Origin: Hirudinaria manillensis | Lineage: Eukaryota; Annelida; Clitellata; Hirudinida; Hirudinidae | Direction of reading: 5' to 3' | Length of the DNA: 64,000 bases | NCBI GenBank assembly: GCA_034509925.1 | Contig: CM067532.1 | Span: forward strand, 7,202,142 to 7,266,141 | In this document: in pieces, positions 31,901 to 34,900 of the stretch | Position numbering within the stretch: the first letter of the stretch is position 1 | How the letters are laid out: each line of letters starts with the position of its first letter | Translations under genes and position numbers: made by a program | Notes under the pieces: generated by a model | What the model saw: the letters and a program-made list of their open reading frames with translations, nothing else | Told to the model about the DNA's origin: nothing | The model's database searches: none

Positions 31901-34900
31901 TTCCAAACAACCTTTGGAAAAGACTTTTACGCTCCACTGGTTTCCAAACTTTTCCAACCTTTGGCAAAGACTTTTACGCTCCACTGGTTTCCAAAAGAAC
32001 TTTTGGCTAAGATTAAAATTTCATTGGCTGAAATTTTTAATTTTAATCTCAATGTTGCTGCTATTGATCTGAACTTTAACTTTTCTTTAATGTTGTTTAA
32101 TAATGTTATTATTGTAATAAGTCAGATTAGGTTATGTTGTTACTAGGTCTTTATTTCTAATTTTAGGATTGATGTTATGTTAACTGGCAGTATTCTTTGT
32201 ACATCCAAGCTATGACATCGAACATAAAAAATGATGAATATCTGGTTTTAATTCATTTAATAATTTTAATTAACTAAAATTCACATTAAAATCACGATCG
32301 TTTCCTCCAGCACTGCATCGGCATTTGCCACACGGCACAGAGGGGATTGTTCGGCCATCGACAGTTCAATGTTTACGTTGACGGTGTCATGCATTTGAGT
32401 CTTGCTGCCAACTTTCCTCTCTACTCGGAGGTGAATTTTGAGTCTTAGAAGAGTCTTGTTTGTAATTAATTAATTAATTGTTAATTAATTAGTTAATTAA
32501 TTAACTTCTTATTATTCGAAACAGACCATCACCGAATGTCGCATGGGTTACTCCTCAGGTCATTCTTCCCACCTCCTGAAGGCAGTGTCCTTAGAGTCCA
32601 GTGATCTCGACATTGACCTCGTTTCCTCAACGAGGACGCCCATGGGGGTCACTCCCCCGATCCAGCCGCGTTCCCTCGGATTCCTTCGGTTCTTTAAAAC
32701 CCCCGTCAGGGCTCCCCAATCTCCTGTGCCACCAAAGAAAGAGGCGACCAGGGCGTTCGATTCGTCTGCTCATCTCGTGCCCCTCGTGGGTTGCATGGTT
32801 GAAGTGATGGTCTTCAATGAGCCGCTAAGTGCTTCTCAATTTGAAAGTCTTTACAAATCAGGTAATCAACTCGTTAGCATTGATGACCTGATTATAACAA
32901 GTCATAATTGGCCATAATTGTCTCCATCTTGTGTGGCAGTTATTGTTTGCAAATGTATTTTTTAATTAAAAAGATTATTTATAATTTTATAATGATATTT
33001 TCATTAAATAGGTCTGAATCCTCAGCAAAGATCCTGCATTGAAAATGAAGACATTATTTCAATCTGTTCAAAAGCAATCCTTTGGTACAATGCAAAGGTA
33101 ACTTATAAAGAATGATTTAAAGCATAAAATGTTTTTAATTGTTATAATAATCCTGCATTTATGAGTTATATTATAATTATTATTATATTATATTATAATT
33201 ATTATTATATTATATTATAATTATTATTATATTATAATAATCTTGTGTTTTGTTAATAGGCATCATCTGGGAACATCTGCTATGACCTCAGTAAATCTTC
33301 AAATAATGCAAAAGTTTTGGCCAAAAGATGTTCTTTCAACAGCATAAAGGTGACATCTCACATCTATTAATTAATTAACTAATTATTTATTTATTTATAA
33401 ATATTTAACTATTTATTTATTTATTTATTATTAATTAATTACTTAGTGATTTTAATAATATTGTTCTATAATATATTTGACAATTTCATTAGACTGCCCT
33501 TCTCATGCATGTTATACTAAAGAATGTGTCTTTCATTTATAGTATTTCCATTTTAATTCATATTTAATGGGTTTCACAAAATTGCAATTATATAATAATA
33601 TATAATATATAATAAGAAATTTTAACGTTAATTGCAATTATTTTATCAGAACTTACTCAACGCTGTCGGAGGAATACAAGCCTTCCTCGCAATTATGGAC
33701 CAAGCCTCACAATACGACCACAGAGGTTTGTTGCTCGTCTGCCATTCAAAACAAGTCCACAGTTTCAACACAAGCTTTTATTTTAGATTCACTTTTAGTC
33801 TTTTAGATTCATTTTAGTATTTTAGATTCACTTTTAGTCTTTTAGATTCATTTTAGTCTTTTAGATTCACTTTTAGTCATTAATTGCATCTAATGAAAGA
33901 TAGTTTTCAGAAATAAGCATGTACGGTTTCGGACTGAAGGAATACGTCGACCTTCTTCTGCTCCTGGTCACGGATCATCCGATGAATTTGGAAAGCTTTG
34001 TGAAATGCGATGGAATGGCAACTCTGGGACTTTATTTGAGAAATGTTTGAAATTGTTTTCCATGTTTAAATTAAATAAATAATTAAATAAATAAGTAAGT
34101 AAATAAATAAATAATGTTTTTCCTTTTTTTAACAGACAATAAAGATATATATTTAACAAGATATTATAAAGTTTAAATTTATAACAAGATATTCTAAAAT
34201 TTAAATCTATAACAATTATGAATTATGATTCAATGACTAAGATGATAACAGCCACTGATTGTGCTTCTACAGGTTGACACTGGTTTCATAGATTTGAACC
34301 TCCTTGAAAGTCTGAAGAACATGTTTGCTTTGCTTTCAAATCATTCCAACTTCCAGGTCCAAATGCTTGACTACGTATTTTTCAACTTCAGGATTTGGAA
34401 GCGAGTTTCTGCCAACGTTTTGTACGGTGAGTGAGTGAGTGAGTGAGTGAGTGAGTGAGTGAGTGAGTGAGTGAGTGAGTGAGTGAGTGAGTGAGTGAGT
34501 GAGTGAGTGAGTGAGTGAGTGAGTGAGTGAGTGAGTGAGTGAGTGAGTGAGTGAGTGAGTGAGCGAGCGAGTGCAGAGGTTGAGGAAGAAATGTTTTTCG
34601 GAATTTATTGATTAACGAACAAATCATTTCAGCCCTCATCGAGATCTTGAAAAAGATTGCCGAGGATAAAAAGGATTTCTGCAGGAAGAAATACGGAGTG
34701 CAATTCCTTCTCGACGTTTATTCTGTTTATTTTGGGTAAAATACATTTGGAGAACTAATTTGATAACAATAATAAGTTAACTCCAGCCCAAATAATTAAC
34801 ATTAAGTAATTATACAAAGTAAAGGAAAATTTTCCAAACAAAAAAAATCTTAATTGGTATTTTAGCACATCAGAACAAGAAATCGATAAAGGAAATGCAA

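What the first reader, a model, noticed from the sequence alone, without database searches (positions are those of the whole stretch)
34421..34632. A (GTGA)34 array whose first unit is the splice donor of NBEAL exon 24
The array starts at the first intron base and every unit (GTGAGT) is a perfect donor for U1 RNA. The cell must pick the first of 34 identical donors. Using any later one would insert GTGA units; the exon frame then reads Gly-Glu-stop, so use of a downstream donor truncates a 2,546-residue scaffold. The array probably grew by slippage from the donor itself, and its length should vary between individuals.
Basis: partly seen in the sequence, partly recalled or inferred. Interest (0 to 1): 0.72.

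Follow-up and report, generated by a model that had tools for sequence, protein, structure and literature searches.

The report
Microsatellite growing from a splice donor
In this animal genome a short DNA word that is also the cutting signal at the start of an intron has multiplied into a long tandem array, and the same is seen at several other conserved genes, giving a natural test of how cells choose one splice site among dozens of near-copies.

Summary
A perfect (GTGA)34 array (34427-34562; 137 bp with the next G) starts at the first intron base after exon 34273-34426 of a neurobeachin-family (BEACH) gene; the next exon starts at 34633. The 34 donors are not identical: only the first is preceded by an exonic G, later ones by A, so computed U1 pairing is 3.7 kcal/mol stronger at the first (one U1 gene of this genome checked). 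That can explain why the array is tolerated. All 36 four-base-stepped insertions tested give a premature stop.

It is not unique. Of 91 genome-wide [ACT]G|(GTGA)5+ places, 54 are array left ends, and 7 of these lie at the 3' end of a conserved exon: this gene, TRRAP, tropomyosin, myosin I, HCN channel, a PH-domain protein and, more weakly, a glutamate receptor, with 5 to 86 units. Slippage growth from GTGAGTGA donors in existing introns is the likeliest origin; the other 47 left ends have no shown exon. Length polymorphism, RNA usage, 'exon 24' and '2,546 residues' were not verified.

The parts
34273..34426 (+). Coding exon (154 bp) of a neurobeachin-family BEACH gene; ends ..TTGTACG, one base into a codon
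   Evidence: Pfam DUF4704 spans its end
34424..34432 (+). First donor ACG|GTGAGT, the only unit with G at -1
34427..34563 (+). Perfect (GTGA)34 array plus one G, starting at intron base 1
34564..34573 (+). Decayed tail of the array (CGAGCGAG type)
34609..34616 (+). Candidate branch point TGATTAAC (branch A about 34615); inference from the sequence only
   Evidence: sequence; not tested
34427..34632 (+). Intron, 206 bp, of which 137 bp is perfect array
34633..34735 (+). Next coding exon, after acceptor TTTCAG

Best explanation
An ordinary but highly expanded tetranucleotide microsatellite that grew by replication slippage out of a GTGAGTGA-type splice donor in an existing intron. It is tolerated because the first unit stays next to the exon: that unit alone has an exonic G at -1, whereas each later copy is preceded by TGA. 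U1 therefore pairs best with the first unit, and splicing mainly uses it. A slip to a later unit adds 4n bases and, here, always a stop codon, so it should give a decayed or truncated product rather than a variant protein. Shown: the anatomy, the coding junction, the recurrence at other conserved genes, the U1 sequence, the computed pairing difference. Inferred: slippage, actual use of the first donor in RNA, decay of mis-spliced products.
For: The array begins exactly at the donor and the reading frame continues across the junction inside a DUF4704 match. Two other loci have both exons found and join in frame at the first unit: TRRAP (K|IYPYLV, gapless to TRRAP chain 7ktr, E 1.6e-26) and tropomyosin (KYDE|VAKELNN, Pfam Tropomyosin 46.0 bits over a 38.6 cut-off and gapless to tropomyosin 3); one or two extra units shift the frame there and three or more give Val-Ser-Glu-stop (units sampled). 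Four more have the upstream exon ending at the array: myosin I (34 units), HCN (86 units), PH domain (10), glutamate receptor (6; weak, PDB E 1.3e-4, Pfam below cut-off). U1 duplex: first unit here -10.2, at the six others -11.5 or -11.6, internal unit -6.5 kcal/mol; equilibrium share of the first unit 92% here and 98-99.9% at the others (HCN computed with 80 units) against 1/n if all were equal. One U1 gene read starts ATACTTACCTG. Donor arrays are not detectably shorter than other arrays (median 30 v. 32 units, p 0.33, n 7 and 47). Flanks show no shared non-repeat element.
Against: No RNA data; first-donor choice rests on coding frame, homology and pairing energies. My survey required G at -1, so it cannot show that G at -1 is needed. 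Of 20 array starts with A at -1 that I picked, one (L152) has a long open frame ending at the array that scores like the seven exons but has no Pfam match; it could be a counterexample. Strong donor context is not enriched at array starts (12 v. 9 in the mirrored control), and (GTAA)n, built from the other consensus donor, has no 5-unit array in this context (0 places), so donor seeding alone does not predict which arrays grow. C at -2 makes this locus the weakest first unit of the seven.
Confidence: 0.72

Rival explanations
1. Length-dependent splicing switch: the array is a functional, or at least consequential, U1 platform whose unit number sets the fraction of transcripts that mis-splice into a stop, tuning gene output.
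For: All 36 insertions tested give a stop. Regulated 4-nt-shifted donors in humans may mostly act through nonsense-mediated decay (abstract of PMC4267661). In the pairing model the first-unit share falls as n grows.
Against: No sign of conservation or function was found or looked for in relatives. Arrays of 5 to 154 units occur at the 47 left ends without a shown exon. The pairing model leaves most use on unit 1 even at n=34. In humans 796 of 122,198 GYNNGY sites are alternatively spliced, mostly noise by that paper's account (PMC4267661, abstract and one section).
Confidence: 0.12
2. The array, or the intron itself, was inserted ready-made (mobile element, introner-like gain) and supplied the donor.
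For: GTGA arrays are numerous in this genome (31,137 + 25,411 overlapping 20-mer hits).
Against: Flank comparison of 54 upstream and 50 downstream pieces gave 18 matching pairs at E 1e-3, none between two of the seven donor loci and two between a donor locus and another locus; the pairs that I looked at are simple repeats or of 29-116 bases. HCN had no downstream piece in that test. The tropomyosin intron position is old from memory, not checked.
Confidence: 0.06
3. The exon actually ends elsewhere, or a later unit nearer the acceptor is used, and the conserved frame at unit 1 is coincidental.
For: Duplicated equal donors often favour the intron-proximal copy (recalled, not looked up). By hand, the last perfect donor is still about 56 nt from the candidate branch A, so spacing does not exclude it.
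Against: Every later register tested truncates the protein, while the downstream exons continue the DUF4704 match and, further on, the BEACH domain.
Confidence: 0.05
4. Assembly or consensus artefact in array length.
For: Tetranucleotide arrays can be mis-sized; reads were not available.
Against: Unique flanks on both sides and a decayed tail, and six further loci of the same anatomy. Even with a wrong length the array start at the donor stands.
Confidence: 0.05

Closest known systems
GYNNGY (GTNNGT) tandem 5' splice sites (PMC4267661; abstract and one section read)
   Same: Donors four bases apart; the second shifts the frame and often brings a stop
   Different: There two competing donors; here 34 (5 to 86 at the other loci) in a perfect array
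GYNGYN tandem donors (PMC1779574; passages read)
   Same: U1 pairing strength correlates with the preferred donor
   Different: Three-base spacing, mostly in frame, two sites only
Intronic tandem repeats that affect splicing, e.g. canine LHX3 intron 5 7-bp repeat (PMC3223203; abstract and passages read)
   Same: A tandem repeat inside a short intron whose unit number could alter splicing
   Different: In LHX3 the repeat acts by intron size; the donor itself is not the repeat unit

Membership tests
Microsatellite (tetranucleotide short tandem repeat) | Head-to-tail perfect or near-perfect units of 1-6 bp | tested here: met
   34 perfect units; TRF 36.8 copies at 98%
Microsatellite (tetranucleotide short tandem repeat) | Same motif arrayed at many places with unrelated flanks | tested here: met
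   Left boundaries genome-wide 484 (GTGA phase), 498 (TGAG), 389 (GAGT), 170 (AGTG), interruptions included; flanks of the 54 left ends tested share no clear element
Microsatellite (tetranucleotide short tandem repeat) | Length polymorphism between individuals | not testable with these tools
   One assembly, no reads or second individual
GYNNGY tandem 5' splice sites | A second GY four bases after the donor GY | tested here: met
   GTGAGTGA at 34427
GYNNGY tandem 5' splice sites | Both sites can pair with U1 | tested here: met
   -10.2 and -6.5 kcal/mol computed
GYNNGY tandem 5' splice sites | Both sites are used in RNA (alternatively spliced subset) | not testable with these tools
   No transcripts held
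Introner or mobile-element intron gain | Related sequence shared by several of the introns | tested here: not met
   blastn of 104 flank pieces (60 bases upstream, up to 250 downstream): 18 pairs at E 1e-3, none linking two of the seven donor loci

The most novel reading that the evidence does not exclude
Splice donors in this lineage are a recurrent birthplace of GTGA microsatellites, and the spliceosome reads the first of up to 86 near-identical donors with little error because a single exonic G fixes the register; the loci form a natural length series (5, 6, 10, 30, 34, 34, 86 units) and, where the first unit is weaker (C at -2, as here), unit number sets a measurable loss of transcript.
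Probability: 0.3. Interest if true: 0.68.

Novelty: new variant of a known kind. Interest (0 to 1): 0.5.

Why it matters
Choice among competing donors is usually studied with two copies. Here several conserved genes carry 5 to 86 consecutive near-copies that differ from the first chiefly by the bases before them. If RNA shows near-exclusive use of the first, a single exonic G may be enough to set the register; if not, array length becomes a heritable dial on transcript loss, with the tetranucleotide's slippage rate as its mutation rate.

Tried and rejected
Whether GTGA-array starts favour strong donor context: not supported. MAG|(GTGA)5+ occurs 12 times and its mirror-image pattern 9 times, out of 484 boundaries in that phase.

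The first 30 GTGA-phase boundaries read (L009-L038, of 484): only L030 scored above the control's 95th percentile as an exon end (11.1 v. 9.6); it and L023 (5.7) have no credible Pfam match. The other 28 were not searched for homology.

A large reservoir of short donor seeds: not found. MAG|(GTGA)3+ occurs 20 times, and 12 of the 20 have 5 or more units.

Other candidate exons ending at arrays: L040, L124, L097 and L125 had no credible Pfam match and are not counted; L129 (7.1) was not searched and is not counted. Exons further down the list were not searched. Length difference between donor and other arrays: none detected (p 0.33; some lengths cut by the end of the piece). A at -2 in 6 of 7 donor starts v. 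21 of 47 others: Fisher p 0.10.

Next exons for myosin, the PH-domain protein and the glutamate receptor were sought in adjoining sequence and not recognised; the HCN downstream piece is mostly N (1,956 of 2,786 bases). The HCN join dropped 24 repeat bases; corrected to 86 units. The HCN exon's one Pfam hit was spurious; its identity rests on the PDB match. NCBIfam gave nothing for two exons. PDB searches with this gene's junction region found no relative.

Identity of the animal: not established; a paper search for sponge assemblies of this size (15 of 22 papers listed) gave none that I could tie to it.

Print: I found no report of a splice donor at the start of a tetranucleotide array among the titles and abstract beginnings listed by seven searches (15 of 2,354; 47: 1 of 1; 50: 25 of 41; 51: 15 of 29; 56: 10 of 95; 70: 12 of 62; 71: 7 of 7); one search returned no paper. 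Open-licence papers only, and capped lists.

Full report
What is there. The window lies on contig C7 of a 148.4-Mb genome in 23 contigs. At 34427 a perfect (GTGA)34 array begins and runs 137 bp, followed by a short decayed tail. The base before it, 34426, is the last base of an exon (34273-34426) that ends one base into a codon, and the next exon starts at 34633 after TTTCAG, giving ...[16 protein letters not shown]. A 46-entry exon model from 26.3 to 47.7 kb (one entry is empty, and the model is incomplete) includes both exons. Two long pieces of its translation carry Laminin_G_3, DUF4704, DUF4800, PH_BEACH, BEACH and WD40 matches, which I recognise from memory as the neurobeachin-family order, and the BEACH part matches LRBA and neurobeachin in the PDB. 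DUF4704 matches residues 281-442 of the piece scanned and the junction is at residue 405, so homology continues across the splice. I could not confirm NBEAL rather than another family member, nor exon number 24, nor 2,546 residues.

Consequence of missing the first donor. I computed the product for 1 to 36 extra four-base steps: one gives a frameshift and a stop after 13 codons; from two on the protein ends Gly-Glu-stop (the printed cases; all 36 contain a stop). At TRRAP and tropomyosin one or two extra units shift the frame and three or more give Val-Ser-Glu-stop (units sampled).

The donors are not identical. The first unit is ACG|GTGAGT; every other is TGA|GTGAGT. With 11 bases of the U1 5' end, which I checked in one U1 gene of this genome (42 U1 matches in all), the canonical-register duplex is -10.2 kcal/mol for the first and -6.5 for the others. 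If use followed U1 pairing alone at 37 C, the first unit would take 92% here. This is a simple model: no pseudouridine, no U6, no proteins, and the animal's temperature is unknown. By hand, the last perfect donor is still about 56 nt from a candidate branch A, so spacing alone would not exclude later units.

How common it is. GTGA arrays abound: boundaries of runs of about 20 bases or more, interruptions inside longer arrays included, number 484, 498, 389 and 170 in the four phases, both strands. I enumerated all 91 places of [ACT]G|(GTGA)5+, had sequence for all 91 (window) and classified them: 37 are inside longer arrays, 54 are left ends (two of these, L059 and L083, still look array-like by eye). 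Seven of the 54 lie at the 3' end of a conserved exon. TRRAP (L048, 5 units) and tropomyosin (L096, 30 units) have both exons found, joining in frame at the first unit. Myosin I (L047, 34 units), HCN channel (L107, 86 units) and a PH-domain protein (L046, 10 units) have the upstream exon identified; the glutamate-receptor exon (L045, 6 units) is weaker (Pfam E 0.0036, below its cut-off; PDB E 1.3e-4). My exon score was calibrated on this gene's own exons, and 300 random intronic GT sites reach 9.6 at the 95th and 26.7 at the 99th percentile, so it is no proof by itself; I counted only exons with homology. Of the other 47 left ends, four candidates were searched in Pfam without credible match.

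Against a general link. Strong donor context is not enriched at array starts: 12 MAG|(GTGA)5+ against 9 for the mirrored pattern. Of the first 30 phase-matched boundaries read, one exceeded the 95th percentile of the control and had no Pfam match. (GTAA)5+ in the same context is absent (0), though I did not count (GTAA)n arrays in general. So donors are at most one of many birthplaces. That donor arrays are not detectably shorter than others (median 30 v. 32 units, p 0.33, n 7 and 47, some lengths cut by the piece fetched, HCN entered as 80) suggests no strong selection on length, but n is small.

Test of the G at -1 idea. My survey was conditioned on G at -1. Twenty starts with A at -1, chosen from the list, gave one long open frame (L152) with a score in the range of the seven exons but no Pfam match; two others searched had none either. 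This is inconclusive and L152 could be a counterexample.

Known context. Four-base tandem donors (GYNNGY) are common in humans (122,198 sites, 796 alternatively spliced) and their alternative use is held to be mainly noise (PMC4267661, abstract and one section read). In GYNGYN donors U1 pairing strength correlates with the preferred site (PMC1779574, passages read). A tandem repeat in a short intron that alters splicing through intron size is known in canine LHX3 (PMC3223203, passages read). In the capped listings of seven searches I saw no report of an array of tens of donors at an exon end.

Verdict. Its value lies in the recurrence: several conserved genes form a ready-made length series for testing donor choice.

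Noticed in passing
window 20726-24402 (- strand): Two sets of reverse-strand open frames resembling sigma-1 receptor/ERG2-type proteins (recognised from memory), apparently tandem gene copies.
   Followed up: no
window 19891-20307 (+ strand): Open frame resembling a C1q-like domain (recognised from memory).
   Followed up: no
window 38279-38596: 13-bp minisatellite ATGACCTAATGTT, 24.4 copies at 88%, inside another intron of the same gene model.
   Followed up: no
G000:C8:561564-573288: Twenty U1 matches at roughly 600-bp spacing with equal or nearly equal scores, a tandem U1 array; 42 U1 matches scored in the genome.
   Followed up: no
L152: Long open frame ending exactly at a GTGA array with A at -1; no Pfam match.
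   Followed up: partly
L048, shortly after the exon that follows the array: A long (GAT)n tract close behind the next TRRAP exon, read as poly-Met in one frame: a second microsatellite near a donor.
   Followed up: no
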